Shown here: positions 48,271 to 63,969 of the stretch, in pieces
How the letters are laid out: each line of letters begins with the position of its first letter
Position numbering within the stretch: position 1 is the stretch's first letter
Assembly (NCBI GenBank): GCA_004293445.1
Contig: RDYP01000021.1
Location: 1-64,000 of the forward strand
DNA: 64,000 bases
Direction of reading: 5' to 3'
From: Verrucomicrobiota bacterium
GTDB lineage: Bacteria > Verrucomicrobiota > Verrucomicrobiia > Verrucomicrobiales > Akkermansiaceae
The notes under the pieces: model-generated
Database searches by the model: none
The model's input: only the letters and a program-made list of their open reading frames with translations
Told to the model about the DNA's origin: nothing
Position numbers and translations under genes: made by a program

Positions 48271-50786
48271 TCGAGATATGCAGTTTTGAGTGATAGGTCA
48301 GCAAGTGTCGCGTTGCTTGATGGATCGAGCACACGGACTTTGAAATTACCGCTGAAGCTATCCTCCATTTTTAGGCCGACTGGAAGGGCGTTTCCAGGTT
48401 TGATTCGCACGCATCCGGTGGCAGGGTTCACGGTCTGGCCAGTGCCGGCCACGCCGACAATGTTGCCGCTGCTGTCCACTGCCTCGATGGCGACCTCCCG
48501 TTCGTTCTCGTCTGCGAAGAGTTGAGCTTCCGGCCACGCGAGGTCTAGCACCGGGCGACGCGATGTGATTTTGTCAGTTTTGCCCTGGCGATAGGCCAAA
48601 ACAAGGTTTGGAGCCGCCGACTTCTTTTTGGTCTGTGCAGCCGTCTCCAGTTGAATGGTCAAGCAAGGCAAGACGCATTCCTGAAGGGAGAGCCCTTCAT
48701 GGTAGTAGATTTGACCACGGGAATAGGGAACCAGCGCTCTGGGGGCTGCGTAGTTTTGAACCTGACCAGGAATCCCGACCTCCTTGGCGGACATCACGAC
48801 GTTGTGAGCATCTGCCGTACCTTCTCCCAAAAGGCAGCGTGACTTCTGAATGGACCATGTGCCCGGTGGCTTCGGTGCGAGGTTTCCTGCCTCCTGATCG
48901 TGAAACAGAATGAAGCCATGATCTGTTGCAACTACGGCACGCTCGAAGCCGAGTTCACCAGCACGTACAAGACCTCGAATAATCAAGCGCACCAGTGAGG
49001 GAATGATGTCGAGCACTTGATGTGGACTATCGTGTGCGATGGTGTCGATGTCTCGCGTCCGGACCACCAGCAGCTTCGCTTTCTCCGGAATCTTGATCTT
49101 CTTCTTGCGCACCAGATCCTCAAGGTCGATGTCCTCACATTGGTCGCCCTTGCACTTCTGCATGTGGGCAAAGCGGGTGGCCGGCGCGGTGGCGATGCTT
49201 CCACCAAGATGGGTCACGAGTTTGTCGCCCTGTTGCACCAGCGAGAGAGCGGATTCGGCATTGGGCATGAGACTTGCCATGCCCACTTCGGTGTAAGTCG
49301 GAAGCTGAGCACATACCGGGACCAGCTCCACCTTGAGTTTGTCCGATAGCTGTTTTTCCAACTCAACTCCAAGCTCGTAGCGCAAGGAATCGACCAGGAA
49401 GTAAGCAACCTTTTCTCCGGATTCCAAGATCGGATTGACGACCTTATCAAAGACCTGCCGATTCCAGAGAATCTGTCCGTTGGCGACCGGCCAGCCTTCA
49501 GCTTGCACAAGTCGGACGAACTCTGCCTGAAGAGCCTCGACCGATTTGAAATAAGCTTTCCGGGCAACGTGCAAGAGCTTCTCCAGACCGTCATGATCGT
49601 TTCCGGCCTGATTAGCTGCTTGCTCCATCTCTCGGTGGTGACGGTCCAGCTCCCGCCAGGTCGTGGCGTATCCGAGAATGATCGATTCGAGGGTTGGAAA
49701 TTTCGGAGTTGAAAGCCGATCTGCGGCATCCAGCAATTCAATCGCACGCGCTGCCAGCGTCCACTCGGTCAAACGCTCCTCGCTGGTCAGCCAGATCGAG
49801 CGCTGGCGGCTATGCCAAATCCCGCGTGCGTTCTCTACCTCCCCCGCAACCGCGAGCTCAACCAATCGGTTCAGGAATATCCGCTCCTCGCAAGCGAATG
49901 TATCCCGGATGCCCAGGCTCTTCATCCCCCTGATCTTCTCTGCCAAATTAAGCTCGTCTTCGACCTCCTGCGCTTTGGTTTTGTAGAGATCCTTGTGATC
50001 GTCGTGGCGACGAAGAGTCTCACAAACTTCGAAGATGAGACTGCGGGCATTCTCGCCAGCGCATGGCACCGTTTCGAGACCGCTTGGAACTTCACCTGCA
50101 GAGTCCATCACGAACTCACTGAAAAGAAGCACTTGCCAGAGTTCATCAGCAATCGATTGCCGGGTCTGCCCGCGTGTCCTGAGCGTATGACCGAGCGACC
50201 GCTGCACAAAATCACGAGCCTCGTTGCTCCATGTGGCATCCGACTTGAGGGCTTCCACCTGTGAAGTTCTGGGGGAGAGTATGCTGGCCAGGATTTCCTT
50301 GGATGACCCCACTTCCAGCAAGGTCTTGAGTTTGGGCCAGGAACCGCCTTCCTCCAGAGCATCGATCATCTCGAAAGTCGGCTCACCCTCTTCAAACATC
50401 CGGTTGATCTCGGACACATGATCCGACTTGGCGCGCCGGCATATGTCAGCGAACTCGTCACCATCTCCTTTTGGAAATGACTCGCCAATCTCCGCGAAGA
50501 CGGCAAACGGGTCCTTCTGCTTTTCTTCCGGATCCACGGGACGCGGTGCAGGTATCCACAAGATCAACTGATGAATTGTCCCGGCAGCCAATCGCTCCAG
50601 AGCCTCAGCGGCGGCTTCACGATTTTGGATGATGGATTCGCCCACGTCGATGACCTCCCGCTTCTCTGAGCCGAGAGAGAGTGCCACATCCCGGTAGCGC
50701 CGGGATGGATCATAGATCACCAGGCAGCCTCGGTCTTGGGCTCGGCGGGCGAAAACTTGGTCACGGATGTATTCTCGAATCGTCAT
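48267..50786 (-). CDS. pglZ: BREX protein PglZ, alkaline-phosphatase-superfamily
   Basis: An 839-residue protein. The N-terminus (MTIREYIRDQVF ... RGCLVIYDPSRRYRDVAL) is typical of PglZ. The middle is helical. The C-terminal phosphatase-superfamily domain has VAYFLVDSLRYELGVEL, LPTYTEVGMASLMP and VVATDHGFILF, which carry metal-ligand Asp and His residues. PglZ is the marker gene of BREX systems and interacts with PglX and BrxC; its enzymatic target is still debated. It lies 15 bases after pglX and overlaps brxL. Confidence 0.95.
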   Translation of the reverse strand: MTIREYIRDQVFARRAQDRGCLVIYDPSRRYRDVALSLGSEKREVIDVGESIIQNREAAAEALERLAAGTIHQLILWIPAPRPVDPEEKQKDPFAVFAEIGESFPKGDGDEFADICRRAKSDHVSEINRMFEEGEPTFEMIDALEEGGSWPKLKTLLEVGSSKEILASILSPRTSQVEALKSDATWSNEARDFVQRSLGHTLRTRGQTRQSIADELWQVLLFSEFVMDSAGEVPSGLETVPCAGENARSLIFEVCETLRRHDDHKDLYKTKAQEVEDELNLAEKIRGMKSLGIRDTFACEERIFLNRLVELAVAGEVENARGIWHSRQRSIWLTSEERLTEWTLAARAIELLDAADRLSTPKFPTLESIILGYATTWRELDRHHREMEQAANQAGNDHDGLEKLLHVARKAYFKSVEALQAEFVRLVQAEGWPVANGQILWNRQVFDKVVNPILESGEKVAYFLVDSLRYELGVELEKQLSDKLKVELVPVCAQLPTYTEVGMASLMPNAESALSLVQQGDKLVTHLGGSIATAPATRFAHMQKCKGDQCEDIDLEDLVRKKKIKIPEKAKLLVVRTRDIDTIAHDSPHQVLDIIPSLVRLIIRGLVRAGELGFERAVVATDHGFILFHDQEAGNLAPKPPGTWSIQKSRCLLGEGTADAHNVVMSAKEVGIPGQVQNYAAPRALVPYSRGQIYYHEGLSLQECVLPCLTIQLETAAQTKKKSAAPNLVLAYRQGKTDKITSRRPVLDLAWPEAQLFADENEREVAIEAVDSSGNIVGVAGTGQTVNPATGCVRIKPGNALPVGLKMEDSFSGNFKVRVLDPSSNATLADLSLKTAYLE

Positions 50787-50801
50787 GAATTTTTTAGGTA
50801 A

Positions 50802-53800
50802 TTAACCCTCCTCAATTAGTTGGGGTTCGTCTTCATCGGGTTCTTCTTCTTCGGCCTTCTTCGCACGCTTCTTCTTCGGCTTGGGGGGGGCGATTTTGCA
50901 GAGGTGTTCCAGGCCGTGGGCGATGGCGATGGAGCGGTCTTTTTCGCAGGCCTTCTCCACGCGCTGGGGCCAGATGGTGTAGGCGAGGTGGGCCCAGTCG
51001 TAGTCGCCTTTGGCGAGCTTGTCCCAGCAGGCTTTGAGGTCTTTCTGCCACTTGGGGAGGCGGAAGAGCTTGTGTAGCGGGCTGGCGGTGATGAGGACGC
51101 CGTCGTTGAGGTTGGGCTTCCAGGGGAGCTTGATGGCACGCTCGATCTCGTCGCGCAGATCCTTGAGTTCGTCGAGGAATTCGCGGAGTTCGCCGGCGCG
51201 GGTGCCGCCGCCACCGGAGGCAGTGAGGGCGTCGAGTTCGGACTGGACCTTGCGGAGCTTGGGATCGAGGAAGTCGGCGAGGCAGGTGTGGAGGGTCTGG
51301 TCGGTGAGGCGGTGGTAGTAGAGCCAGAGGGTGTAGCTGCCGGATTTGGTGGAGAGCGGCCAGTAGATGGGGGCCTGGCGGCGGCTCTTGCTGTAGCGCT
51401 TGAGGTGGTCGGCGAAGAAGGCGGCGGGGCGGCGGAAGTAGTCGCGCAGGGTCTTCGCGCCGAGGATGCCGCAGGCTTCCTGCTCGATGGCTTCGGCGCG
51501 GTCCTTCCAAATCACCTCGATAGCCTCGCGGACGCGGGCGACGATGTCCTCGGGGTGGTTCTCGTCGTCCACCAGGATGCCGTGCCATGATATGCGCAGC
51601 GGGTAACCGGCGGGCACGTCCTTCGGCTCGGCGGGCAGGCCCTCGGCGTTCTGGAGCATGCCGGGCGGGCAGACGGGCAGCGGGTCGAAGGGATCAGGCA
51701 ATTCGGGCGGCTGGCGCTCGCCGGTGGCAAAGCGGATGTCCCAGCGGCCGAAGGCGGTTCCTGCACAGTAGGACAAAAGTGACTCCTGATTAGCATAGGG
51801 AGAGAAATCAAGAACGTCTTCGCTGCTCGTTTCGTCATCCTCAGTTTCATCCGACTCTGCCTGATCGTTGCCGCGTCCGATGTAAGCAAGGGCCTCGCGG
51901 AGATCACGCTCAACTGTTCTCACCTCCGCTTCGTCCAATCCAAATGCGCTCGCCACTAAGCTTTCACCCAACGTATCGAGAAACTGCTCCATGTTGTATT
52001 CAAGTGCTTTGCCTGCATCCGTAAAATCGCGGACGCTGGAGGGAATCAGGAACTCCAAATATGGTTCTTGGTTCCGATAACAGCGGCGCCTTCTTTCAAC
52101 CTCGCGTTTGATGATTTCTGAAAAATAGTCATCGGCATTATCGGGCAGACGTGGCCATGGGAATACCTTGAGATCCCCAACCAAATAATTCGGACGCTCA
52201 AATACCTCTCCAAAAAATCTTAGGAATGATGAGGCGATTCGAGATGCGCATACTCCAACAGCTTTGTTGAGCATTCCGCTTGTGGGGATTGCCATATAAC
52301 GACTTGCCGAAGGAATGCATCCTTGTGGAATCACATATGGAATGAATCGTGGCGCTCGTCGCGTCCAGCTGAATCCTGGTTTGAAAAAGTGAAGTCTAAT
52401 GCTGTCTCGAAGCATCCAGATGTTGGAGCGAACTGTTCCCTTAGGCGTAAGGTTGTTCCAGAGCTCAGCTGCATCACTCGCCCAGTTTACGACTAACGTG
52501 ACCGGGGAGAACCAAGGTTGCGAGGCACCGGCTAGTACATAAGGAGCCCATCGACCGCCGCCGCAACCGAGTCTTTCTAGAGGCGGGGATTCCCACAGCG
52601 TCCTTACGAACCGCGGGTTGTCGGCCGTTGCGAGTCCTTGTCTCACATCACCAACGGTGTCCTTGAAGCGAGGAAGGCCAGAGAACTTCAGTAGTGCACG
52701 CCGAGGAATCCAATAGACGAATTGTGCGTTTGGAAGCAGTTCAAAGTCGCGCTGATCTGCTATGAACATCCTTTCGTCTCGGTTGCCGAGGTGATACCCA
52801 AGCATGATCTGGTTGAGGGCTGTTTCTTTGTCTGGTTCCGATAAGACTCTGAGAAATGGTGACCTTCGTCGTGGCGTCGCTTTCTCGATGACGTAAGCTG
52901 CCGCATCAACCATCGCAGCATCCATGACCCCGTGGCCAAGATCGCAAACGACCGATATCGCAGCGTTTTGCTGGAGAATCTCGCGTCTCCATTTAGAGAA
53001 GCTACTCAGGAAGAAACAAGTGCGAGCTGTGATCGCTCCAATGACTCCTGCTGGGTGAAGTCGTCCCAATCCCCTCTCAACAAAAGCCCCAAGAATGTCG
53101 TTGTAGCAAGACGGATATGCCTTTTTCGCCTCACTAATCCAAAGCTTGGAGAACGCCCCGAACGGCGGATTCATCACGACGGCGTCGTAGCGTTTGCGGC
53201 AGAGGTCGATGAGGGCGAAGCCGCGGGCGGCATCGTCGGCGAAGAGGCGGCGCTGGTAGGACTCGGCGTCGGCCTGCTCGGCGTAGGCGCGCAAGGCGTC
53301 GATGACTTGTTGTTCGGCAGTGGCGAAGAACTCCTCCTGGGAGCCGTCCTTGCGGGTGAGCAAGTCGTCCTGTTGTTTGAGCCACTCCTTGCGAGCGGTG
53401 TCGATGGCGGTGCGGATTTCCTCCTCGATCTTGAGGAGAGAGCCGGCCTCTCCGGCGAGCTGCATTTTGTCGAAGACGGTCTTCACCAGCTCGCCGAGCA
53501 GATCGGGTTTCAGGGTGGCGACGAATTCCTCCAGCATCTCCGGGCTGCCGGGCATGGGCTCGGCGCAGACGATGTTCGAGCGGCGGACGCGGGGGCGGTC
53601 GGCCGCAGGCACCTTCTGTTGCTGCCAGGCCTTTTGGGCGCGGAGCCAGAGGGAGAGTCCGGCGATCTGAACCGCGCGCGAGTCGATGTCGATGCCGTGG
53701 ATGTTGTGCTCGATGATGAGGCGAGGGACGTCCTTGAGGAACTCTTCCTTGGAGGCATAGGCATACTGGAGGGCCGGGCAGGAGCCGTTGTCCCAGGCTT

Positions 53801-54842
53801 CCTCGTAGATGGTCTCGAAGAGGTCGAAAGCGTAGAGGCCGAAGTGCATGGACCCGCAGGCAGGGTCGAGTAGACGGATCTCGCGAGGATCCTTGAGCGG
53901 GCGGTGCGGGATGTGGACGGGCTGCTTGAGGAGTTCCTCCTGGCTGAGGCTTTCCTGGTCGGGTGTCTCGGGGGCGGTTTCGCCCTCGGCGAGGAAGATC
54001 TCGGTGGGGCGGCGGACGAGGTAGCGGCACTGCTCGGTGAGGCGGGTCTGGCCGCGGGTCATTTCATACCAGATGCGGCCGATGGTGTTGTCGGTGAGGA
54101 ACTCGACGACATAGCGGGGGGTGAAGAACTGGTTGCGGACGGCGAGTTCGCGAGAGTTGCGCGGTGCGGCGGACTCGGCGCGCATTTTTTTCCGTTCCTC
54201 TGGGTCGTTGTAATACTGGTAGATCCAGCCGATGGTTTCGTCTTCGGCCCAGAGGCGTTCCAAGTCGGCGGCGTGGAGGAGGTCGAGCAGGGTCAGGAGG
54301 GCGGGCTCGCGGGGGAAGAGCAGGGCCTGGGGCGAGCGGCGGTCGAAGAGAATGCCGAGGTCGATGGCCAGCTCGTCGAAGAGGCAGAAGAGGTAGCGGC
54401 GGTAGCGGTGGTAGGTGTCGCCGAGGGCGGAACCGGCAACGGTCTCGAAGACCTTGAAACCCTTCGACTGGTAGCCCTGCCCGACGGATTCGACGATGAG
54501 GCCGCGCTTTTCCGCCATGCGAATGGCTGCGAGGCGGTTGAGGATGGTGAAGGCCTGCTCACGGGCGAGACGGGCGACGGCGGCTTTTTTTCCGTCCTTG
54601 TCGTCAGGGTGGGTCTTTTCCAGGTATTCGATGCGCTCCCGCAGTAGGGCGGCGGTGGCCAGTCCGGACTCGTCGAGGTGGCCAAGTTTGTCGAGCGGGG
54701 CGATGTCGCCCTTGGCGGAGATGCCGTAGAGGCTCTGGAACTGCTCGGTGAATTCGTCTGCGATCACGCGTCGGGCGTCAGAGACGAACTTGGCGAGGCG
54801 GTTGCGGGTTGGTTTGTCGAAGGACATAGGAGATAGAATCAA
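50802..54842 (-). CDS. pglX: BREX adenine-specific DNA methyltransferase PglX
   Basis: A 1346-residue methyltransferase, at the long end of the family. SAM motif I is RLLDPACGSMHFGLYAFDLFE (about 325-345, split here at 20) and catalytic motif IV is VVMNPPFGAFSK (about 556-567), an NPPF type for N6-adenine. PglX modifies the BREX recognition site on host DNA and is also needed for restriction. The central part (about 570-1020), expected to hold target recognition, is markedly poorer in G+C than both ends. The C-terminus ends in a Lys/Glu-rich tail. It lies four bases after brxC and 15 bases before pglZ. Confidence 0.95.
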   Translation of the reverse strand: MILSPMSFDKPTRNRLAKFVSDARRVIADEFTEQFQSLYGISAKGDIAPLDKLGHLDESGLATAALLRERIEYLEKTHPDDKDGKKAAVARLAREQAFTILNRLAAIRMAEKRGLIVESVGQGYQSKGFKVFETVAGSALGDTYHRYRRYLFCLFDELAIDLGILFDRRSPQALLFPREPALLTLLDLLHAADLERLWAEDETIGWIYQYYNDPEERKKMRAESAAPRNSRELAVRNQFFTPRYVVEFLTDNTIGRIWYEMTRGQTRLTEQCRYLVRRPTEIFLAEGETAPETPDQESLSQEELLKQPVHIPHRPLKDPREIRLLDPACGSMHFGLYAFDLFETIYEEAWDNGSCPALQYAYASKEEFLKDVPRLIIEHNIHGIDIDSRAVQIAGLSLWLRAQKAWQQQKVPAADRPRVRRSNIVCAEPMPGSPEMLEEFVATLKPDLLGELVKTVFDKMQLAGEAGSLLKIEEEIRTAIDTARKEWLKQQDDLLTRKDGSQEEFFATAEQQVIDALRAYAEQADAESYQRRLFADDAARGFALIDLCRKRYDAVVMNPPFGAFSKLWISEAKKAYPSCYNDILGAFVERGLGRLHPAGVIGAITARTCFFLSSFSKWRREILQQNAAISVVCDLGHGVMDAAMVDAAAYVIEKATPRRRSPFLRVLSEPDKETALNQIMLGYHLGNRDERMFIADQRDFELLPNAQFVYWIPRRALLKFSGLPRFKDTVGDVRQGLATADNPRFVRTLWESPPLERLGCGGGRWAPYVLAGASQPWFSPVTLVVNWASDAAELWNNLTPKGTVRSNIWMLRDSIRLHFFKPGFSWTRRAPRFIPYVIPQGCIPSASRYMAIPTSGMLNKAVGVCASRIASSFLRFFGEVFERPNYLVGDLKVFPWPRLPDNADDYFSEIIKREVERRRRCYRNQEPYLEFLIPSSVRDFTDAGKALEYNMEQFLDTLGESLVASAFGLDEAEVRTVERDLREALAYIGRGNDQAESDETEDDETSSEDVLDFSPYANQESLLSYCAGTAFGRWDIRFATGERQPPELPDPFDPLPVCPPGMLQNAEGLPAEPKDVPAGYPLRISWHGILVDDENHPEDIVARVREAIEVIWKDRAEAIEQEACGILGAKTLRDYFRRPAAFFADHLKRYSKSRRQAPIYWPLSTKSGSYTLWLYYHRLTDQTLHTCLADFLDPKLRKVQSELDALTASGGGGTRAGELREFLDELKDLRDEIERAIKLPWKPNLNDGVLITASPLHKLFRLPKWQKDLKACWDKLAKGDYDWAHLAYTIWPQRVEKACEKDRSIAIAHGLEHLCKIAPPKPKKKRAKKAEEEEPDEDEPQLIEEG

Positions 54843-54846
54843 AGGG

Positions 54847-57800
54847 TCATTTCGTTTCCTGGATGATCTGGCAGGTCAGCCTCAGCTTTGTTCCCGCTTC
54901 AAGAGCTGCCAGGTGCGTATTCAGTTGATCGATCAGATCCTTGATCTGTTTAGTAGAATCGAGCGAGACGGGTAGGAGCAGAGTTTCCTCCTTGATCTTG
55001 CCTCCATTTTCTCCGGACTTTTTCTGCTCCTCTTGCTTAACCTTACGATTGGCGCGAGCAGCCGCTGCCTTTTCTGCAATCGTGGATTCCAACTCACGCA
55101 AGCGGTGGTTGAGCGTGTAGTCGTGATTGAGGAGGTCTCGGAGGCCATCGGCATCCTGGGTGACGGTTTTGGCGAGTCTCTCTACCTCTTGGCTGATCCA
55201 GTCGCGGGAATCGCCGTCCAGGTCTTGCCAATCCGTTGAGTCGCTCCAGCGTGCGAGGCTTTCGAGGCGAAGCTTTTCCTGTTGAGAAGCAATCTCTGTG
55301 ACGGTGGAACCGATGAGTTTATCCAGGGTGTCCGCGTGTTTTGCCAAGGCTGCCGTCTCCTCGAAAAAAGAGCTGCGGGCGAGAAGCTCATCCACTTCTG
55401 CGATGGCCTCGGCCGCATCGGCCTTGAGCTTTGCCGGAACACCAGAATCGGGGAGACCGTTAATGTCATGGCGCAGACGCTGGAGGTGTCCCAGTTTCGT
55501 GCGCAGTCCGTTGTCCAGGGCCTTCTTGAGGCTGCGCGCCCAAACCAGGTCATCGTAAAGGGCGCTGTCCGCACCACCGAAGCGTTTGACTGCGTCCGAC
55601 CCATCACCACTGACTACGGCGGTAAGGTCATCCTTCAGTGCATCAGCGCGGTCGGAACACTCGGCTGGGAGTCCGTGATTGCGGAGATCGACTGCTAGCG
55701 GGCCAAAGGCAGCTTGATAGGCTGGGAAGTGCTTCTTGGCTGCGGCCGCAATATCGACCTCCAAGGGCATGATGTTTTCGCCGGAGAAATCGCGGAGTCG
55801 TTCGCTGGCCCGTAACAGGGCGGCGGGATCGGGTTTCTCTTCGCGGAGGGAAACTCCAACTGCACCGAACGATTTGTTCGATTTGAAGGCATCGAGCGAT
55901 TCGTCGCTGGTTACCTGATGGTCGTGACCTGCAATACGGAGCTTGATCACCCCACCGAGGAACGCGGCTGCCAAGAGGTAGCGAGTGGTATCCTTTGACC
56001 AACCGAATGGGGTGGCGGAAAAGTGGTCGAGCAAGCGACGACCCTCCACCTGGCCGCTCTGGCCAAGGTAATCGCTGATGGAAACGATGGCCTTGTGGTC
56101 TGACTTTACCTGCGGCTTGCCGCCAGCACGGGACACTAGCGAAAGCGGATCTTCCCTGGAAGTAACGCGATCCAGCGGAGTCGTAAGGAATTTCTCTGCC
56201 AAGGTAGCATCGGCCTGGTGGGGTGCTTCGTCATAGCGGTCGAACACCTTTGCGGCAGCATCACCGAGGAAGGACTTTGCGGCATCCAGGACATCCGTGC
56301 CTCGACCTGCCACAGCCTCGTGGGCACCGTGGGCAACAAAAGATCCTTGGATCAAGGTTTCTGCCAGTTTGCGTTCCAGCTCGGCTGACGTCCTCTGCAT
56401 TTCAGATTCCTTCATTCGGGAAAAATCCTGTGTGTCAGAATCTGAGGCAGTCCGATGTGTATCCAAAAACTTCCGGCACTTTACCAACGTGATCGCCAAT
56501 TGGTCAGCATCTTGTTCCACGCGCCCGAGTAGATAAATATTGGATCGTTCGCGAGAGGAACGGGAGTCGTTCTCGCGCTCCGTGCGCGTTGCATCATATG
56601 AAGATGCCGGCGCAAACTCGATATGGAGTTGGATCGGTTCCTTTTCACCCTCCAGAGAAACCGACTGACCACCGCCGATCACGACCCGCAGGCCAGCGGT
56701 GACAGGGCGCACCTGGGCAATGCGTGCCGAGGGCAACGGGTTGAAGATCGAACGCAGAACGCCGTTCAACTCGGCCCGGATATCGGCCTGGCGATAATCA
56801 ATCTGATCGAACTGTTTCTGCAGGGTGACAGCCGCTTGGGTGAGGAAGCGCAAGCTGCCGTTCTTTTCACCCAGGGGAATCATGGCATCCTTGAGCATGG
56901 CATCGACTGCCTTCTCAACATCATCCTTGATCGAAGGCGATTTGACGGCTGGCTGCATGAGGGCAGCGATGTTCGCCACGGTGACCGGGAGGTTTTCGAG
57001 AATTTGCAGGACTGCGATGGATTTGGCCACATCCTGGGCCAGTGCGTCATGCGGTAGGCGCTGCGCGACACGCTGCACTCCCTCAACGACGTGCGGGAAG
57101 CTGGAGAAGATGTCCCGGCGCAAAGAATCGTAGAATGTAACGGTGTTGGCCAGGCGGCCGACTTCCGTATCTGCAAGTGGACCCTGGTCATGGCCGCGCT
57201 CAATCAGCACTTCCTGGACGACTTTGATGGCCGAGCGAAGACCGAGGCCACCTGTCTTCTTGGCAAGGCGACCAAGGAGCTGGAGGAGAATTTCAAAGTG
57301 GGCAGGTAGGAACGGATAGAGATCTACGAAAAGTTTCTTCGTGAGTTCGGTGTCATAGACGCCCGCGTCAGAAAGCTGTGTCGCGGTGCGGAGTGATGAG
57401 CCAAACTGGTCGAACATCTGATTCAGCGACTGTTCACCACCAGAGGATTTCGTAAGCAGACGTTTATGGCAGATTTCCTTGATGTCGCTGGCTTCCAGGT
57501 GGACTTGAATCGGGAAACGATCCTTGAGCTTGTAGAGCCCGGGAGAGTTGAGCGCAGCAGTTGGATTATCGTCGGTGAGCGTCTGTTGAGCAGTGGCGAA
57601 AATCCACACGGAGCCGCCGCCGATCTGTTTCAGGTTTTTGGCGAGACCATCGAGGTTGAGAATGAGGCTCGGCTTGGCAGATACGTATTGGCCGACCTCG
57701 TCGATGATGAATAGAATGTTCTTTTTTCCGGACTTGAGTCGGATGAGGTCGATCATTTCCTCGGCCCGCTTGTTTTCAGCCTTGCTGACGTGGAGTGTCA

Positions 57801-58509
57801 GGTCGCCAAAGTCGGATGCATTCTTGAAGAGATTCGGGTAAAATTCAGTTGCGAGCTGAGACGCAATTTGGTTTGCGACCAGAGGCTGGTTGTGAACCTC
57901 GATCCAGTCGATGCCGCCGAGTTCTTCCTTGGCGCGAGCCTTGAACGCATCGAGCTTCCCATCTCCTTCAAGCATGCGCTCCAACTCGGCAACTTTCAGG
58001 TCTTCCGAGTAGCCGGCCCATTGCAGAACCTTGAGGTAGAGAACGGTGGAGATGTCCTCCATCGAGGCACCGGCGAGCATTTCACTAGCGAGGTCGAGGA
58101 ACAGAACTGCCGAGTCATAGACCGTCGAGACCTGGTTGAACATCGCCCGCGCACCTGCGGAGGGAATCTGGTTCTGCAGTAGCTTGAGGAACGGGTCACC
58201 CCCGAGCTTCATACTGCGGTCGAGCGAAAAGCCCAGGTATTTGGTGAATGAGCTCTTACCCGAACCATAGAATCCCGAGACCCAGACGCCGATTTCGTTC
58301 CCGCCGCCACCCTGCTGTGCCATCTGCATTTTGCCGAGCAACTCCTCAAAGCTTTGCTCGATATGATCGGTGACGACGTATTCTGAAATTTCCGCACGGA
58401 GCTGCTCCTCGGATCGGTTTTGATAGGTGATGACTTTCTCAATTGGCCTGGCGAGGCTGCGGGAAGAGTCAAATAGATCGCGGATGGTGGACATGGTAGT
58501 AGATGGCAA
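54847..58509 (-). CDS. brxC: BREX P-loop ATPase BrxC
   Basis: A 1220-residue ATPase. Walker A is VSGFYGSGKSSFTKYLG (about 78-94) and Walker B is ILFIIDEVGQYVSAKP (about 260-275). A further region LIERGHDQGPLADTEVG and a C-terminal coiled-coil section with many Glu/Lys (about 1060-1200) complete the family layout. BrxC is the largest core BREX component and the ORC/Cdc6-like motor. Start ATG 58509 follows brxB with a three-base gap; ATG 58494 is an alternative. Upstream and downstream genes fit the brxB-brxC-pglX order. Confidence 0.95.
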   Translation of the reverse strand: MPSTTMSTIRDLFDSSRSLARPIEKVITYQNRSEEQLRAEISEYVVTDHIEQSFEELLGKMQMAQQGGGGNEIGVWVSGFYGSGKSSFTKYLGFSLDRSMKLGGDPFLKLLQNQIPSAGARAMFNQVSTVYDSAVLFLDLASEMLAGASMEDISTVLYLKVLQWAGYSEDLKVAELERMLEGDGKLDAFKARAKEELGGIDWIEVHNQPLVANQIASQLATEFYPNLFKNASDFGDLTLHVSKAENKRAEEMIDLIRLKSGKKNILFIIDEVGQYVSAKPSLILNLDGLAKNLKQIGGGSVWIFATAQQTLTDDNPTAALNSPGLYKLKDRFPIQVHLEASDIKEICHKRLLTKSSGGEQSLNQMFDQFGSSLRTATQLSDAGVYDTELTKKLFVDLYPFLPAHFEILLQLLGRLAKKTGGLGLRSAIKVVQEVLIERGHDQGPLADTEVGRLANTVTFYDSLRRDIFSSFPHVVEGVQRVAQRLPHDALAQDVAKSIAVLQILENLPVTVANIAALMQPAVKSPSIKDDVEKAVDAMLKDAMIPLGEKNGSLRFLTQAAVTLQKQFDQIDYRQADIRAELNGVLRSIFNPLPSARIAQVRPVTAGLRVVIGGGQSVSLEGEKEPIQLHIEFAPASSYDATRTERENDSRSSRERSNIYLLGRVEQDADQLAITLVKCRKFLDTHRTASDSDTQDFSRMKESEMQRTSAELERKLAETLIQGSFVAHGAHEAVAGRGTDVLDAAKSFLGDAAAKVFDRYDEAPHQADATLAEKFLTTPLDRVTSREDPLSLVSRAGGKPQVKSDHKAIVSISDYLGQSGQVEGRRLLDHFSATPFGWSKDTTRYLLAAAFLGGVIKLRIAGHDHQVTSDESLDAFKSNKSFGAVGVSLREEKPDPAALLRASERLRDFSGENIMPLEVDIAAAAKKHFPAYQAAFGPLAVDLRNHGLPAECSDRADALKDDLTAVVSGDGSDAVKRFGGADSALYDDLVWARSLKKALDNGLRTKLGHLQRLRHDINGLPDSGVPAKLKADAAEAIAEVDELLARSSFFEETAALAKHADTLDKLIGSTVTEIASQQEKLRLESLARWSDSTDWQDLDGDSRDWISQEVERLAKTVTQDADGLRDLLNHDYTLNHRLRELESTIAEKAAAARANRKVKQEEQKKSGENGGKIKEETLLLPVSLDSTKQIKDLIDQLNTHLAALEAGTKLRLTCQIIQETK

Positions 58510-58512
58510 AAA

Positions 58513-59112
58513 TTATCCGATATGCTCGGAGCGGTAGTTGGGGTCGGCAGGGTAGAATTCGAGAAAACGGAGGCTGGTCTTGCCCTCACGTTTTCCCGGA
58601 TAAAGGACGATGACGGGACAGCGCACTTCGTCTTGGATTTTCGCTTCGATGCTGTTGATGCGCAGGTAGGGGTGAAGTGCTTCAAGGTCAGTTAGGAGAA
58701 GAAGGCCACCGGGCTGACCGGAAGCTTCGTCCATCTTTTCCCTTACCATAGCGAGCAGTTCAGGACCTTCCGTGAGCGCCTTTCCGAGTGTCTTGTTGAC
58801 CTCGGCGATGGTGCTGGCTGGAATGGCTCCGCTGGCCTTGGACAAGGCCAGCTTCTCGCCAATGAGCCAGGTATTCCGGAGCTTGTGGTTTTTGAGAATG
58901 GATCCAACGGCATCCGCAAACGAGAGAGTGACCACATTCCAGCCCTGATTTTGGAGCTTTGCGACCCAGGCTTTTGTCTGACGCTTCACTTCCAGGATTT
59001 CCCGGGTGGAATACACCAAATAGTAAATGGGAGCTGATCCGGTGCTTTCCAAGCGCCGGCCATCGCGAACCCGAAGACATACTTCGTCGAATTTATCTTT
59101 GAGTGAGTGCAT
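58513..59112 (-). CDS. brxB: BREX protein BrxB (DUF1788)
   Basis: A 199-residue protein. It includes the family's ending FYPADPNYRSEHIG, and LLLLTDLEALHPYLRIN with PVIVLYPGKREGKTSLRF. These match the DUF1788/BrxB family, which is found only in BREX loci and is essential in type 1 systems, although its molecular role is unknown. It overlaps brxA by 20 bases and is three bases from brxC. Confidence 0.95.
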   Translation of the reverse strand: MHSLKDKFDEVCLRVRDGRRLESTGSAPIYYLVYSTREILEVKRQTKAWVAKLQNQGWNVVTLSFADAVGSILKNHKLRNTWLIGEKLALSKASGAIPASTIAEVNKTLGKALTEGPELLAMVREKMDEASGQPGGLLLLTDLEALHPYLRINSIEAKIQDEVRCPVIVLYPGKREGKTSLRFLEFYPADPNYRSEHIG

Positions 59113-59887
59113 TTAGACAATCGTGTATTGACCGGTATTTCCAAGAGATTTGAACCAATTCACCACTGGATTGAACCAGGAAGTGTCCGTCATGTGAAAG
59201 TGTTTTGAGGCAGTTGAGAACTTCCCCTGGCTCGAAACCGAAAAGCAACCAGTCACGGTGCTGCATGATCGCGCTGTCGCTTACACCTGCGAAATGGAGG
59301 TCGTGCGCCAGGTAGAGGGCCACTTCCGGCCGAATCGAGAATCGCTGGATAGTCCTCTCGGATCGTCCGCTGTCGGCAACAAGTCCGAAGTCGGCACAGC
59401 ATCCCAGAAGGTAGCCGGAAACCCTGCGGACTGTGGATTCTGACCAACGGATCACCATTCGACCAGAGTCCAGTGCTCGATGCACAAAGCTTTCCGCATC
59501 CTTGCGAGTCACAACTGCGGCACCACCGCTGTATTTGGACCAATACACTTCGACCACGAAATCCGCGAATATCCGTTGCGCCCTGGCTGTGTAGAGAAAG
59601 CAAAGCTGAATCATTCCCTCATGAGTGAAACGATTTGCCTGGAGGAATTTGAGGCGGGAGGCTACCTCACCCTGATCCGCCAAGTATCTTGGAGCGAACA
59701 TTTCTACGGTGAGGTTCCTCGCCCGCCTCGCCGTCGTTCGGGAGAATAGTCCATCCTGAATGACTTTCTCGGCAAGTCGTGCCGGAATCATCCCTGGCTC
59801 CCATAGTCGCAGCAGATCGAGGGTCTCCGGAATCATTCCGAGACCCGCCTGTAGTTGGGTGGTGTATGGAGCCTCTGCTTTAATCAT
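59093..59887 (-). CDS. brxA: BREX protein BrxA (DUF1819)
   Basis: A 264-residue helical protein, longer than the roughly 200 residues common in type 1 systems. It has TTQLQAGLGMIPETLDLLRLW, LFSRTTARRARNLTVEMFAPRY and WSESTVRRVSGYLLGCCADF, in line with the DUF1819 family, whose structure has winged-helix DNA-binding parts. It overlaps brxE by four bases and brxB by 20, so the three are translated as one unit. Confidence 0.85.
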   Translation of the reverse strand: MIKAEAPYTTQLQAGLGMIPETLDLLRLWEPGMIPARLAEKVIQDGLFSRTTARRARNLTVEMFAPRYLADQGEVASRLKFLQANRFTHEGMIQLCFLYTARAQRIFADFVVEVYWSKYSGGAAVVTRKDAESFVHRALDSGRMVIRWSESTVRRVSGYLLGCCADFGLVADSGRSERTIQRFSIRPEVALYLAHDLHFAGVSDSAIMQHRDWLLFGFEPGEVLNCLKTLSHDGHFLVQSSGELVQISWKYRSIHDCLNALTQR

Positions 59888-60393
59888 GCTTCAGCGGAAA
59901 AGTAGGGATAACAGCGAGTGCCCTTCGAGAAGGCGGAATAGTAGTGGGCGGCCAGTTCGCGTAGAGCGGTCTCAGTCAGGATCTTTTTTTCGATTCCGAT
60001 TTGCACGGGGCCATCCGGTGCGTTGACCGCGGAATCAGCTATGCTGGCAAGTTCGGCCAGGGCTTCATTTTTGGTGGGCAAATCGCCATTGAGTTCACGC
60101 ACTTCGAGAAGTCGGTCTTCGATCGTCAGCGGCAACCGGAAGAGATGGTAAGAGCCAATTCTGCCAAGCGCTGCATCGTGAACTCGCTGCGCTGCCTCAG
60201 TGGTGGCTTGAAACGCTGCACCCGCGGCAGATCGCGGAAAGGAGTTAGCCAAGAACTTGATGCCCGTTTCGTCCATAAAGGAGCATTCCCACCATGCTGC
60301 GTTCATTTTGCTGCCGAGAATTGCGACAAGCCAGCGGAGGCGGTCGTATTTGGTCAGTATTGTTAGCGATGAAGCTTTGGACAGAGTGGCCAT
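59884..60393 (-). CDS. brxE: BREX protein BrxE
   Basis: A 169-residue protein. The segments KYDRLRWLVAILG, AWWECSFMDETGIKFL, FPRSAAGAAFQ, EAAQRVHDAALGRIGSYHLF and RLPLTIEDRL match, as I remember the family, BrxE, which is found with type 6 BREX. It overlaps brxA by four bases. It is the first gene of the BREX core here, directly after an A+T-rich 113-base gap likely to contain the promoter. Function of BrxE is unknown. The family call is from memory rather than alignment. Confidence 0.75.
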   Translation of the reverse strand: MATLSKASSLTILTKYDRLRWLVAILGSKMNAAWWECSFMDETGIKFLANSFPRSAAGAAFQATTEAAQRVHDAALGRIGSYHLFRLPLTIEDRLLEVRELNGDLPTKNEALAELASIADSAVNAPDGPVQIGIEKKILTETALRELAAHYYSAFSKGTRCYPYFSAEA

Positions 60394-60506: not shown

Positions 60507-62702
60507 TTATGTTCGACGGACAGAAAATCCCGATAATTCTGCCAGATTGATATCATCCTGGTGGGTAAATGGCGAGTCATTATTAGGAGTATTAGTAAAT
60601 TCATCATCTTCGATGTCTTTTACCTGGCGGCGGCCAATCTGATCATTGACGATAAACTTGATGCCCCATCCGTCTTCGAACTCGTGGAACGGGTCGTCCG
60701 ATAGGGGCATCACGTAGGACTTCAGGAATTTCCGAACATCGGAAATCGCCTTGCGGTCGTTCACGTCACCACGTCGTTGGGTCAGACGGTTGCCTCTTCC
60801 AAGTTCGCCGAGGATCTGGAGCAGCCGGGTTGGATGCCTACCATGCCGCAGTCTGATGTTCATATCCAGCCATGGTCGGATGCGCTCTTGACCGTGAATC
60901 CTACAGCGCAGGCCGTCGAGCTCGATGGACAGCATGAGGTCTTTCCAGTTCCAGTCTGCCTTCGGCGTGAACATCGGTGGCACGGCTTTCGTTTCCTTCC
61001 CCCGGATCTTGTTGCGTGCGGGTGCGATGGAAAGCTTTTCGAGTCCTTTGGCTGAATTGAGAACGATGATCCGAACGTCGTGTTTCGCGGCGAGCGTGCT
61101 CACCTCCTGGGTGAATCCGCCGCGAGTGGGCAGAAGCAGAATCGAGGACTCCAAATCACAGATCGCCGATTTGATCGTTGCCTCACGGGGATTGAGGTTG
61201 GGAACAAACAAATGGACGGCAAGTGGTTCGCCTGGCCGGATGTCGAATGATCCGATCTCATGGACGGCCCCCTGGCTCCACTTCGGCTGGTCCGCAGGCG
61301 TGAATCCCAATTTCCTGCCAAGGAACTCGGCGATCCCCTTCAGATTGGGAACGAGCTGGACGCAGTCTTCGCGTTTGAAGACAAGTGGGGGACGATGGGA
61401 GGGGATCTCCTGACTGAATCCAAGGAAACTGCCGTCCTTTTGTGGCTCCAATTCGAGAATCTGCCCGGGCCATTCCGGGTCTTCGATGAAATAAGCCACG
61501 TCCGAGGCACGCAACAGCGACTGGCACTCGGCAAACTCATCGCCAAGTTCCTTTTGCCATGATGCCCGGACCGCCCCGAGCCGGCCGAGTTGGTCAAGAC
61601 ATTGCAAGAAGCGCATCATGCTCGTGGTATCGGATGAATTTGCAGGCGTCCATCCACATGCGGACGTTAGGGTCGTGGATGTCACCTTGGATTTTGTCGT
61701 CTTCGCGAAGGAGGCATTCACGAGATCGAAATCCTTCATGTATTCGTGGCCCCGCAATTCGAGCTCTTGATACACGTCGTGAGAGTGATGCGTCGTGATG
61801 CTGGTCGTGCCCTTCCGTCGCAAGGTCAGCTTGCGCAGTCGTGACGCAGCCACTGTTTCCAGTTCGGGACGAATCAAGCAATCCCTGCCGCTGCGCAGTG
61901 GGTTCAATGTAAAGCGCCGTGATGGCTGGAGGATGTTGATGTCTCCAAAGAGGTGCTTCGAAAAGACCTGTCGATAGGTGTTTTTCACTTCATCGCTGCG
62001 GCCAGAAACCAGCAGTTCGCCGGTCTGAGTATCGAAAAATCCGACATCATGCTTCACGGGTCGGAGCGCTTTCACATCACGACGGTAGTCGTCATCGAAG
62101 ACCTCGACCCTCTTGACCCGTTCGCCATGGCGAATGAGCAACGCGTAACCTGCCGCCTCGGGGAAGGCCATCACTTCACAGATCGGAATGTCGAAGAGGT
62201 CTGAGCAATCGAATTCCAGTTCCTTGGCAATAGAGTTGCAGACGTGCCAGTTTAGCTCGCTAGACTGTTGCATGATCTCGGGACGAAACGACTTCATCGT
62301 CCGGTTCCGTTTGAGGCTGAACTTGGTGTAGATTCGCTGGATCGCATTCGAGTCGAGGATCCAGACTTTCAGCACGATGTCACCAACCGTGTCGCCCTTT
62401 TCTTGAACCTTTTTGACGAGGTCAGGCACCACCACTCGGAGTTCGTCGATGCCAGGGCCCGAGGTGAGCATTTCAAGCAAGTCCACCGCAGCGAGGAAGT
62501 CTCCCGGACAATGGGTGGGCGGTGAGACGATGATCGCCGACAACTGCTCAAGCTCGGCACTGCTGAGCTCGCCACCGCTGACGTTGATTCCCCTCGATTC
62601 AAAGAATACGGCGAACTTGCGCAAGAGACACATGAGGTTCTTGGGCTTGATTTTCCGGAGGAAACCGGGATTGCCGAATCGTCTGAACGCGGGATTGCTC
62701 AT
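60507..62702 (-). CDS. unrecognised 731-residue protein in the head of the BREX island
   Basis: A large protein for which I recognise no family. It starts MSNPAFRRFGNPGFLRKI and has no membrane helix. Segments such as VVVPDLVKKVQEKGDTVGDIVLKVWILDSN, split over about residues 88-117, and LLRASDVAYFIEDPEWPG suggest an alpha/beta protein. Residues about 332-369 read as Ser/Thr-rich nonsense, while the -1-related frame there gives protein-like sequence (EDDKIQGDIHDPNVRMW), implying two compensating indels near 61701-61706 and 61593-61599. It lies 19 bases after the ImmA-like gene and 113 before brxE, so it belongs with the regulatory head rather than the BREX core. A functional assignment is not possible. 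Confidence 0.75.
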   Translation of the reverse strand: MSNPAFRRFGNPGFLRKIKPKNLMCLLRKFAVFFESRGINVSGGELSSAELEQLSAIIVSPPTHCPGDFLAAVDLLEMLTSGPGIDELRVVVPDLVKKVQEKGDTVGDIVLKVWILDSNAIQRIYTKFSLKRNRTMKSFRPEIMQQSSELNWHVCNSIAKELEFDCSDLFDIPICEVMAFPEAAGYALLIRHGERVKRVEVFDDDYRRDVKALRPVKHDVGFFDTQTGELLVSGRSDEVKNTYRQVFSKHLFGDINILQPSRRFTLNPLRSGRDCLIRPELETVAASRLRKLTLRRKGTTSITTHHSHDVYQELELRGHEYMKDFDLVNASFAKTTKSKVTSTTLTSACGWTPANSSDTTSMMRFLQCLDQLGRLGAVRASWQKELGDEFAECQSLLRASDVAYFIEDPEWPGQILELEPQKDGSFLGFSQEIPSHRPPLVFKREDCVQLVPNLKGIAEFLGRKLGFTPADQPKWSQGAVHEIGSFDIRPGEPLAVHLFVPNLNPREATIKSAICDLESSILLLPTRGGFTQEVSTLAAKHDVRIIVLNSAKGLEKLSIAPARNKIRGKETKAVPPMFTPKADWNWKDLMLSIELDGLRCRIHGQERIRPWLDMNIRLRHGRHPTRLLQILGELGRGNRLTQRRGDVNDRKAISDVRKFLKSYVMPLSDDPFHEFEDGWGIKFIVNDQIGRRQVKDIEDDEFTNTPNNDSPFTHQDDINLAELSGFSVRRT

Positions 62703-62721: not shown

Positions 62722-63435
62722 TTAGAAAAGTGAGGGTTGGTCTGATTGTTCGATCCACCATGAACCGAGTCGGATGGAAACCATCCTTCGGCTGACGGTG
62801 AAAAGCGTGGAAAGTTCTCGTTCTGCTTCGGCTACCCGATCCTCGAATGATCCGGGGCCGGATAGGACACGCGGCAACTCGGCGCGGGCGGCTTCGATCA
62901 GCAGATGCTTGGGGAGCAGGAGTGCCGCCATGGCGAGATTCGCCTGGTATTCCCACCATTCAAACTTGGGCACGCTCTGCATTCCTCCCTCGGCGCGGCA
63001 CAGGAAACCGTCCTTGGTGACACTATCGAAAATGCCTGCTTCCTCGCCGAACAACTGCCCGGCGGATTCTACGTTGAGTTTCTCAACAAAAAGATCGGTG
63101 TGAAAAAGCCCGTGGCCGGCCTCGTGTGCCAAGGTCGAGCGCACCCGGAACTTGCTCACCATGTCATCCTGCTCCGCGAGCTGGCGGTTGATGATGATGC
63201 GCTTGAGGCCTTGCCGTGTGAACTTGGCGCAACCCATGATGTGCTCAGGCAATGACTCGAATTCCTCCTCGATGCCGAAATGCAGGAAGATGAAGCGTTC
63301 GATCCGAATGGGGCCCGGCGATGAGGGCATGAGATCCACCGCGGAGAGCGCAGTGCGACACGCGTCCTCGATGCGGTTTTCGTGTAGGTAAAGTCGCCGA
63401 CAAAATGGGCCGGCCGTATTTCTTACGGAGCTCAT
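62722..63435 (-). CDS. ImmA/IrrE-type zinc metallopeptidase
   Basis: A 237-residue protein with the zinc-peptidase motif TLAHEAGHGLFHTD (His104, Glu105, His108), the hallmark of ImmA/IrrE (DUF955) proteins. The following helical part (ANLAMAALLLPKHLLIEAARAEL) is also typical. Its start overlaps the XRE gene's stop (ATGA at 63435-63432). In phages and integrative elements such pairs work as a repressor and a protease that cleaves it on a damage signal. Here the pair heads a BREX island, so it probably controls expression of the downstream genes. Confidence 0.9.
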   Translation of the reverse strand: MSSVRNTAGPFCRRLYLHENRIEDACRTALSAVDLMPSSPGPIRIERFIFLHFGIEEEFESLPEHIMGCAKFTRQGLKRIIINRQLAEQDDMVSKFRVRSTLAHEAGHGLFHTDLFVEKLNVESAGQLFGEEAGIFDSVTKDGFLCRAEGGMQSVPKFEWWEYQANLAMAALLLPKHLLIEAARAELPRVLSGPGSFEDRVAEAERELSTLFTVSRRMVSIRLGSWWIEQSDQPSLF

Positions 63436-63848
63436 TGGTCTTCTTTTTTGTTCGGCAGGTTCTCCGTGAGATCGAGAATCTCGGACGGCGGGATGTTCTT
63501 CTCTCGCACCGCATCGACGAATTTGCGGAAGGCGAGGCTGTATTGGGTGTCTTGCTCGATGAGTTCCTCCATCTGCCTCGATGGCGGACGGGTGGAATAC
63601 TTGAGCAGGTCGTCTAGATCGGTCCCCAGGGCGGCGGCCATTTTCTCGACCAGAGCTTCAGACGGCTGGCGGTTTCCGATCTCCACATCGCGGACGTGCG
63701 GGGCAGATGCGCCAACCTTTTCACCCAGTTCACGCAACGACAGACCCGCTTCGTGACGAAGCTCTGCCAGACGTTCTCCAAGTGACTTGTGAAGCATGTA
63801 AGCAGACTTGCTAACTACACCCAAATCGTCAACCGGAAATGTCGCCAT
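63432..63848 (-). CDS. XRE-family transcriptional regulator
   Basis: A 138-residue protein with a Cro/C1-type helix-turn-helix at about residues 22-80 (LGERLAELRHEAGLSLRELG, ASAPHVRDVEIGNRQPSEAL) and a C-terminal helical tail. The start at ATG 63848 gives a short N-terminal arm; ATG 63797 (MLHKSLGERL) is an alternative. It is coupled to the ImmA-like gene. Two perfect palindromes lie 55 and 101 bases upstream of its start and are candidate operators, suggesting autoregulation. Confidence 0.9.
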   Translation of the reverse strand: MATFPVDDLGVVSKSAYMLHKSLGERLAELRHEAGLSLRELGEKVGASAPHVRDVEIGNRQPSEALVEKMAAALGTDLDDLLKYSTRPPSRQMEELIEQDTQYSLAFRKFVDAVREKNIPPSEILDLTENLPNKKEDQ

Positions 63849-63878: not shown

Positions 63879-63919
63879 GTTTTCACACCCCGAGGCTGGC
63901 ATGTGTGAAAATTTCACAC
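63879..63919. promoter_or_regulatory. candidate operator: GTGTGAAA half-sites
   Basis: GTGTGAAA and TTTCACAC at 63903-63919 form a perfect dyad around one A. A further half-site, GGTTTTCACACC, is at 63879-63890, and another copy, GTGTGAAAAA, is at 63991-64000. Both full GTGTGAAA sites on the plus strand are preceded by the similar GGC(C)AT. These repeats sit just upstream of the XRE gene and are the best candidates for its binding sites. Confidence 0.6.
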
Positions 63920-63948: not shown

Positions 63949-63969
63949 AACCATTGACCGTCAATGGTT
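63949..63969. promoter_or_regulatory. 21-base perfect palindrome upstream of the XRE gene
   Basis: AACCATTGAC and GTCAATGGTT flank a single C, giving perfect 10-base arms. The minus-strand reading contains TTGACGG, which could also serve as a -35 element for the XRE operon. It differs in sequence from the GTGTGAAA repeats, so it may bind a different protein. Confidence 0.6.

What the first reader, a model, noticed from the sequence alone, without database searches (positions are those of the whole stretch)
60507..62702. Unrecognised 731-residue protein between the regulator pair and BREX
It is a large soluble protein with no motif I can name, encoded between an XRE/ImmA pair and brxE. Its tight spacing with the metallopeptidase (19 bases) suggests they function together. 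It could be a new BREX regulator, a phage sensor, or an independent three-gene defence system (XRE, ImmA, unknown).
Basis: inference. Interest (0 to 1): 0.75.

Follow-up and report, generated by a model that had tools for sequence, protein, structure and literature searches.

The report
Prophage switch-region gene pair, fused
The "unknown 731-residue protein" is two neighbouring phage genes run together by a small deletion; in related phages these two probably DNA-binding proteins sit at the switch between dormancy and replication and head operons that carry interchangeable anti-phage defence systems such as BREX.

Summary
The ORF is real, but not one native protein. In 27 distinct relatives the same stretch is two overlapping genes: orfA (~385 aa) and orfB (~355-370 aa). 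In the window a clean 49-nt deletion fuses them. The locus is the probable immunity region of a prophage (terminase, portal, capsid, integrase; divergent Sak4 recombination/replication operon). orfA-orfB head operons whose cargo varies: BREX of several types, type I/III/IIG R-M, DISARM-like, DUF499 systems. In three more distant loci the pair lies directly before the Sak4 operon with no cargo seen. So it is a phage module, not a BREX subunit. OrfA's model has the RdgC / CENP-N-L fold, the scaffold also reported for lambda RexA, likewise an immunity-region protein. OrfB may end in a winged helix (weak evidence). In divergent-type phages without XRE-ImmA, the region before orfA carries paired GGACATGTCC palindromes, 87-88 or 97-98 bp apart (one helical turn); this genome holds exactly two copies, both before orfA of its second, related prophage locus. 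Best reading: OrfA-OrfB are switch-region DNA-binding proteins, in XRE-less phages perhaps the repressor. Fusion, prophage setting and cargo swapping are shown; DNA binding and regulation are inferred.

The parts
61704..62702 (-). orfA remnant: first 333 codons (native length ~385 aa in relatives); RdgC/CENP-N-L fold predicted for the intact relative L029
61594..61703 (-). displaced C-terminal codons of orfA and its native stop, now out of frame with the first 333 codons; the 49-nt deletion junction is at about 61703/61704
60507..61619 (-). orfB from its own ATG (370 aa), intact; overlaps the native end of orfA; possible C-terminal winged helix (weak)
62722..63435 (-). ImmA/IrrE-type metallopeptidase (HEAGH), weakly CapP-like
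63432..63848 (-). XRE (HTH_31/HTH_3) regulator, CapH-like
63903..63919 (.). palindrome GTGTGAAAATTTCACAC, putative XRE operator 1; its partner TGTGAACGTTCACA lies just past the window (contig C6 64013-64026), 108.5 bp centre to centre
63951..63967 (.). CCATTG-N5-CAATGG inverted repeat between the two operators, also seen in some XRE-less relatives; role unknown
59884..60393 (-). brxE, first cargo gene
46165..59887 (-). BREX cargo: brxA, brxB, brxC, pglX, pglZ, brxL
44509..46139 (-). cNMP-binding + CAP12/Pycsar TIR protein (45204-46139) and a 232-aa gene (44509-45207) that by eye looks like a class III cyclase (no family hit)

Best explanation
The window ORF is a deletion fusion of two phage genes, orfA and orfB. 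Intact relatives encode two overlapping genes in the switch (immunity) region of a family of temperate phages seen in Verrucomicrobiota genomes and in IMG/VR contigs. OrfA is a DNA-binding-type protein of the RdgC / CENP-N-L / RexA scaffold; OrfB is a soluble partner, possibly ending in a winged helix. Together they probably bind the divergent control region between the lysogeny operon (XRE-ImmA-orfA-orfB-defence cargo, or orfA-orfB-cargo) and the Sak4-exonuclease-helicase-primase operon and help set the switch. In divergent-type phages without XRE-ImmA they are the best candidates to bind the paired, helically phased GGACATGTCC operators themselves. The downstream defence operon (here BREX plus a Pycsar-like pair) is exchangeable cargo expressed with the lysogeny operon. 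Shown: fusion, prophage genes on the same contig, gene order, cargo swapping, palindromes, OrfA model fold. Inferred: DNA binding, who binds the operators, effect on the switch, expression of the cargo.
For: Two genes in relatives and a 49-nt deletion in the window. Same contig: terminase, portal, head protease, capsid, tape measure, integrase, excisionase, Sak4-like protein, exonuclease, primase by PHROGs and a tRNA-Ser beside the integrase. Cargo varies behind orfB. Pair before the Sak4 operon without visible cargo in L080, L116, L117. OrfA model pLDDT 84, pTM 0.78; the 12 Foldseek hits at E 0.001 or better (5.7e-5 to 8.6e-4) are RdgC, CENP-N, or chains lettered N of kinetochore complexes; VIA Z 10.3 RdgC, 10.1 and 9.7 CENP-N (tied), then CENP-L chain 9.2 and Iml3 9.1. 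Operators: 28 exact GGACATGTCC in 209,793 bases of 13 XRE-less loci, 27 of them between orfA and the Sak4-like gene; 0 in 217,799 bases of 14 XRE-type loci. In the own genome only 2 sites in all, both before orfA on C9. In 288 phylum genomes the paired site occurs in 2, the same 2 in which the single-sequence orfB search hit. In IMG/VR 15 of 27 paired-site stretches belong to this family, all spaced 87, 88, 97 or 98; 12 of the 15 have orfA next to them and 3 end before it. No HTH_3 or M78 over cut-off in 11 of 11 XRE-less contigs, both present in 6 of 6 XRE-type contigs.
Against: No binding data. The XRE-type and XRE-less groups are two single clades, so the operator/regulator match may reflect one event. 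The distant pairs in G085 and G140 (L117, L116), found later with the profile, have no GGACATGTCC pair. The XRE-less contigs may be fragments, and a regulator of another class could sit elsewhere. XRE-type phages keep orfA-orfB but lack GGACATGTCC, so the pair would need another site there. orfB is broken or partial in L007, L008 and L009 beside cargo, and orfA in the window, so the pair is not always kept. RexA and RdgC are reported to bind DNA non-specifically (PMC11077077, passages and Introduction), so OrfA may too. The OrfB model is weak (pTM 0.52; VIA best Z 6.2, winged-helix rows Z 5.0 and below), and no Pfam winged-helix match appeared in 23 members. The XRE clade 2 operators are spaced 122-123 or 110, not in phase with the rest. 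The left prophage end is unproven.
Confidence: 0.55

Rival explanations
1. OrfA-OrfB are a Rex-like exclusion/accessory pair: an immunity-region operon passenger that binds DNA non-specifically and excludes other phages or tips the switch, while another factor is the repressor.
For: Same scaffold as reported for lambda RexA and a similar place in the immunity operon; soluble OrfA.
Against: No sequence link to RexA (hhalign probability 0.4); RexA itself was not among the 50 rows listed by either structural search, which does not exclude it; OrfB has no membrane segment, unlike RexB; a dedicated palindrome goes with orfA in the divergent XRE-less phages.
Confidence: 0.22
2. OrfA-OrfB are recombination/replication factors of the Sak4 module (RdgC-like) that merely lie at the cargo junction.
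For: RdgC fold; adjacency to Sak4, exonuclease, helicase and primase in both arrangements.
Against: In 28 of the 32 Sak4 loci with the pair it is divergent from that operon, the other four being co-directional, and it runs with XRE-ImmA and cargo.
Confidence: 0.15
3. A dedicated controller or subunit of methylation-based defence systems, extending CapH-CapP.
For: Most cargo that could be named is modification-based: BREX, R-M, DUF499 systems, C5 methylase.
Against: Pair occurs with no cargo seen (L080, L116, L117) and with cargo in which no methylase was recognised (L032, L052, L068); CapH-CapP-like genes were not found in 11 of 17 contigs tested; orfB is broken in some cargo-bearing loci.
Confidence: 0.06

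Closest known systems
Lambda RexA (and RexB), cI-rexA-rexB immunity operon (PMC11077077)
   Same: Position in the lysogeny operon behind a repressor and divergent from replication functions (XRE-type phages); OrfA model shares the RdgC/Iml3/Chl4 scaffold that the paper reports for RexA.
   Different: No sequence similarity found; OrfA has an extra helical N-terminal part; OrfB is soluble and not RexB-like; large defence cargo behind the pair.
RdgC / CENP-N, CENP-L (Chl4, Iml3) fold group
   Same: Two TBP-like repeats; CENP-N also matches the helical part before them (model 65-379 on chain 2-213, 187 residues, 4.1 A, Z 9.7).
   Different: No Pfam match of this kind in 24 of 24 members; context is a phage switch region, not recombination housekeeping or kinetochore.
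CapH-CapP controllers of defence operons (PMC13373217, passages)
   Same: XRE + ImmA-type peptidase at the head of an operon with defence genes.
   Different: Here they sit on a phage, divergent to the replication operon, like a phage repressor and its protease; CapP match is weak (2.9e-5); orfA-orfB are extra.
Defence hotspots of P2/P4-type phages (PMC9122126, title and start of abstract in a search listing only)
   Same: Fixed spot in a temperate phage with exchangeable defence systems.
   Different: Different phage family; cargo headed by a conserved two-gene module; cargo as large as a BREX operon.

Membership tests
BREX core component or known BREX regulator | constant presence with BREX cores | tested here: not met
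   Found with type I/III/IIG R-M, DISARM-like and DUF499 cargo and with no cargo seen; no PADLOC or NCBIfam match
Lambda RexA/RexB | sequence similarity to RexA | tested here: not met
   hhalign of A2 with lambda RexA: probability 0.4, 24 columns
Lambda RexA/RexB | RdgC-like two-domain scaffold | tested here: inconclusive
   OrfA matches RdgC and CENP-N/L; RexA itself not among the rows listed
Lambda RexA/RexB | partner is a four-helix membrane protein (RexB) | tested here: not met
   OrfB hydropathy maximum 0.97 versus 2.39 for RexB; hhalign probability 0.1
Lambda RexA/RexB | gene lies in the lysogeny operon next to the repressor | tested here: met
   XRE-ImmA-orfA-orfB in XRE-type phages; in XRE-less phages orfA itself is first. 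That XRE is the repressor is inferred
RdgC (Pfam) / CENP-N / CENP-L | profile match at sequence level | tested here: not met
   0 of 24 members match any such family
RdgC / CENP-N-L fold group | shared fold | tested here: met
   Foldseek E 5.7e-5 to 8.6e-4; VIA Z 8.0-10.3 for RdgC, CENP-N/Chl4, CENP-L and Iml3 chains in the first 17 rows; predicted model only
CapH-CapP | HTH protein plus HExxH peptidase next to a defence operon | tested here: met
   PADLOC 3.1e-14 and 2.9e-5; HEAGH in sequence; BREX downstream
CapH-CapP | peptidase cleaves the HTH protein upon ssDNA binding | not testable with these tools
   needs biochemistry
Temperate tailed phage | terminase, portal, capsid, tail, integrase on the same element | tested here: met
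   PHROGs, contig C6 82-103 kb; left end of the element not proven

The most novel reading that the evidence does not exclude
OrfA-OrfB are a new kind of two-part phage repressor: a CENP-N/RdgC-fold protein and a partner bind two palindromic operators whose spacing changes by whole helical turns, loop the DNA between them, hold the Sak4 replication operon shut, and keep the lysogen's exchangeable defence operon on; XRE-ImmA with operators of their own took over in one clade.
Probability: 0.33. Interest if true: 0.85.

Novelty: new variant of a known kind. Interest (0 to 1): 0.62.

Why it matters
If true, BREX and other methylation-based systems travel as cargo of temperate phages behind a fixed, nameless regulator pair, which would explain how such systems are swapped and controlled in Verrucomicrobiota. 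It also adds a phage-switch member to the RdgC / RexA / CENP-N-L fold group and gives a ready test: paired operators whose spacing differs by a helical turn, with only two copies in this genome.

Tried and rejected
Considered and dropped. (1) A single large enzyme: ruled out by relatives. (2) BREX subunit: ruled out by contexts. (3) Host LexA or another global regulator at GGACATGTCC: the own genome has only the two prophage sites, about 3.8 expected from the window's base composition. (4) An active PD-(D/E)XK nuclease in OrfB: VIA rows Can2 Z 6.2, AF1548 6.0, EndoMS 5.9 are within the range of unrelated models, and no acidic residue is among the columns conserved in 90% or more; Foldseek gave nothing at E 0.001 or better in PDB or BFVD. 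(5) Proving the left prophage end: lysA and the gene beside the tRNA-Ser are far apart or on different contigs in the relatives, bamA, next to lysA in a relative, lies on another contig of G000, and a 16-bp 15/16 repeat (C6 44344-44359 and 103181-103196) is only a candidate. (6) Helical phase for all: fits 87-88, 97-98 and 108.5-109.5, not XRE clade 2 (122-123; one at 110); L060 has two further copies at other spacings and L045 only one exact copy. (7) Plasmids (orfB) and GenBank phages (orfA), each with one L005 sequence: no match. (8) PDB sequence search with A2 and A3: nothing significant. (9) Other modules at the same hotspot (AAA ATPase with kinase-like genes, nucleotidyltransferase set, SIR2-like, MORC + Dcm) were named by eye only. 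The methylase flags are a motif search, not profiles. Literature: nine full-text searches; by title and abstract listing, searches showed no paper on this pair. Papers: PMC11077077 abstract, passages and Introduction; PMC12839542 outline, abstract and passages; PMC4080450 one passage; PMC13373217 passages; the rest only in search listings.

Full report
WHAT IS THERE. The ORF 60507-62702 (-) codes for 731 residues, 19 bases after an ImmA/IrrE-type peptidase gene that overlaps an XRE gene, with brxE downstream. No profile library or PDB sequence names it. The one full-length relative of the genome-contig scan, L005 (Akkermansiaceae MAG), has two overlapping genes instead: orfA 385 aa and orfB. 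Aligned with L005, L028, L029 and L030 the window lacks 49 nt at the point where the frames change. Residues 1-333 are OrfA, 362-731 are OrfB from its own ATG, and about 52 C-terminal residues of OrfA are out of frame. One search lists 47 orfA-orfB pairs (27 distinct contigs, my count; window copies and short loci dropped beforehand), all with overlapping ORFs. So the window is a fused, probably damaged copy, or an assembly error; orfB is intact. Other copies are broken too: orfB lacks its middle in L007 and L008 and only its 3' end is left in L009, next to cargo; L008 starts at a contig end.

WHERE IT LIES. Contig C6 of the window's genome continues past the window with a Sak4-like protein, exonuclease, primase, terminase, portal, head protease, capsid, tape measure, excisionase and integrase (gene order) next to a tRNA-Ser. 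The Sak4 operon is divergent from XRE-ImmA-orfA-orfB-BREX. This is a prophage; its left end is not proven, because the two flanks are not neighbours in relatives. The genome holds a second such locus on C9: orfA-orfB at about 26-32% identity, followed by PglW (PADLOC E 0), a PglX-like methylase and further genes that by eye are a type 2 BREX set.

CARGO. Behind orfB, by database match: BREX (window; L008; L010), DUF499-DUF3780-DUF1156 (L005; L009 by similarity to L005), PLD-SNF2 helicase (L004, L007; with a IIG-like methylase in L004), type IIG (L006), DISARM-like DrmD (L030), type I R-M (L036; HsdM in L044; HsdS in L070), type III R-M (L040; methylase in L060) and a C5 methylase (L029). L015 has a 1234-aa weak BrxC match and a methylase by motif; L034, L041, L063 and L069 have methylases by motif only. 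No methylase recognised: L032 (MkoA-like, YqaJ), L052 (DUF4268, Piwi) and L068 (no PADLOC hit); L028, L042, L048, L064 and L065 could not be classified. In L080, L116 and L117 the pair stands co-directional with the Sak4 operon and directly before it; an integrase (by eye) lies upstream in L116 and L117, and I saw no defence genes there, by eye and without a profile search; L118 has a weak orfA (E 4e-4) in the same order. Of 98 Sak4 loci read, 32 have the pair (window and weak L118 included; 28 divergent, 4 co-directional), and 40 have at least 3 kb upstream and no pair; many of these 40 are distant Sak4 relatives. Thus the pair is a phage module.

WHAT THE PROTEINS LOOK LIKE. OrfA (model of L029, 24 sequences): pLDDT 84, pTM 0.78; helices to residue 130, then two TBP-like repeats. 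The 12 Foldseek hits at E 0.001 or better are RdgC, CENP-N, or chains lettered N of kinetochore complexes. VIA Z: RdgC 10.3 (217 residues, 5.8 A), CENP-N 10.1 (185, 4.6 A) and 9.7 (187, 4.1 A), tied; CENP-L chain 9.2 and Iml3 9.1 follow; adaptin ears reach 8.8 over 89 residues. That CENP-N/L orthologues and RdgC share a fold is known (PMC4080450, passage), and RexA of lambda was added to it in 2024 (PMC11077077). The window copy lacks the last strands and helix of repeat 2. OrfB (window, 23 sequences) is modelled less well (pLDDT 77, pTM 0.52); residues 225-322 resemble OmpR-type winged helices at Z 5.0 or less, the middle resembles PD-(D/E)XK folds at Z about 6 without conserved acidic residues. 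Both are soluble by hydropathy.

THE CONTROL REGION. Phages with XRE carry two palindromes between XRE and the Sak4-like gene (GTGTGAAAATTTCACAC and TGTGAACGTTCACA, 108.5-109.5 bp apart in 9 of 9; a second XRE clade has TGTGAG-type sites 122-123 bp apart in 4 of 5 and 110 in one). Divergent-type phages with orfA but no XRE carry GGACATGTCC instead: 28 exact copies in 13 loci (209,793 bases), 27 of them in this region (the other inside orfB of L060), and none in 14 XRE-type loci (217,799 bases). Of the 13, 12 have at least two exact copies (L045 has one; L060 has four, two of them extra). The main pair is spaced 87-88 or 97-98. On the OrfA tree L032 (87) is nested among 97-98 phages, and L042/L044/L070 (87-88) lie apart from it, near L066 (98), so a one-turn change happened at least twice. 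In IMG/VR 27 stretches have such a pair within the allowed gap: 15 in this family, all with these spacings (12 with orfA adjoining, 3 cut off before it), and 12 others, spaced 78-102, in which no orfA, orfB or Sak4 match was found, two of them short. Of 288 phylum genomes 2 have the pair of sites, the same 2 that the single-sequence orfB search found; the distant, co-directional pairs of G085 and G140 in the same sample do not have it and show another palindrome instead. In the own genome (3.35 Mb) the 10-mer occurs twice, both on C9 before orfA. HTH_3 exceeds its cut-off in 6 of 6 XRE-type contigs and 0 of 11 XRE-less ones (five of the 11 have sub-threshold matches); Peptidase_M78 likewise 6 of 6 and 0 of 11; these records may be fragments. 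A CCATTG-N-CAATGG element shared by 8 of 27 regions of both groups is unexplained.

READING. The simplest account is that the first gene of the lysogeny operon matches the operators: XRE where XRE is present, OrfA/OrfB where it is not. Against this, the two groups are single clades, RexA and RdgC bind without sequence preference in the cited work, the pair is sometimes broken, and XRE-type phages retain the pair without its supposed sites. I therefore put the switch-region regulator reading at 0.55, with a Rex-like accessory pair (0.22) and an RdgC-like recombination factor (0.15) as rivals. The defence genes, BREX here, are best seen as lysogen-expressed cargo; their expression was not tested.

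COMPARISON. It works most like lambda cI-rexA-rexB, but is not a member: no sequence link to RexA, and OrfB is not RexB. XRE-ImmA resemble CapH-CapP, yet here they occupy the place of a phage repressor and its protease.

Noticed in passing
44509-46139: A cNMP-binding + CAP12/Pycsar TIR protein next to a 232-aa gene that looks by eye like a class III cyclase: a possible Pycsar pair at the far end of the BREX cargo.
   Followed up: partly
28986-29972: A bacterial nitric oxide synthase oxygenase domain protein (Pfam NO_synthase 1.6e-135) next to a sigma-54-type response regulator in the chromosomal part.
   Followed up: no
L010 (G000 contig C9 8001-28000) and L129: A second, apparently cryptic prophage locus in the same genome carries its own orfA-orfB and PglW with further type 2 BREX-like genes (partly by eye), so the genome seems to have two BREX systems each headed by this pair.
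   Followed up: partly
L010:3251-5695: The phage helicase gene on C9 appears to hold an in-frame insert of about 300 codons, perhaps an intein, relative to its relatives (by eye).
   Followed up: no
L046, L050, L054, L055, L058, L071: At the same phage hotspot another conserved head module (RHH-like, nucleotidyltransferase-like and 355-aa genes, by eye) replaces orfA-orfB; in L054 a large gene with a methylase motif follows.
   Followed up: no
L007:15153-20014: A methylase-like gene in the cargo seems interrupted by an IS-like transposase gene (by eye), and orfB there is internally deleted.
   Followed up: no
63951-63967 and relatives: CCATTG-N-CAATGG inverted repeat between the operators in 8 of 27 control regions of both phage groups; role unknown.
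   Followed up: partly
L116, L117, L118 upstream of orfA: A CGGTCACACGTGACCG-type palindrome (exact in L116 and L118, a near copy in L117) before orfA in the co-directional phages, perhaps their operator.
   Followed up: no
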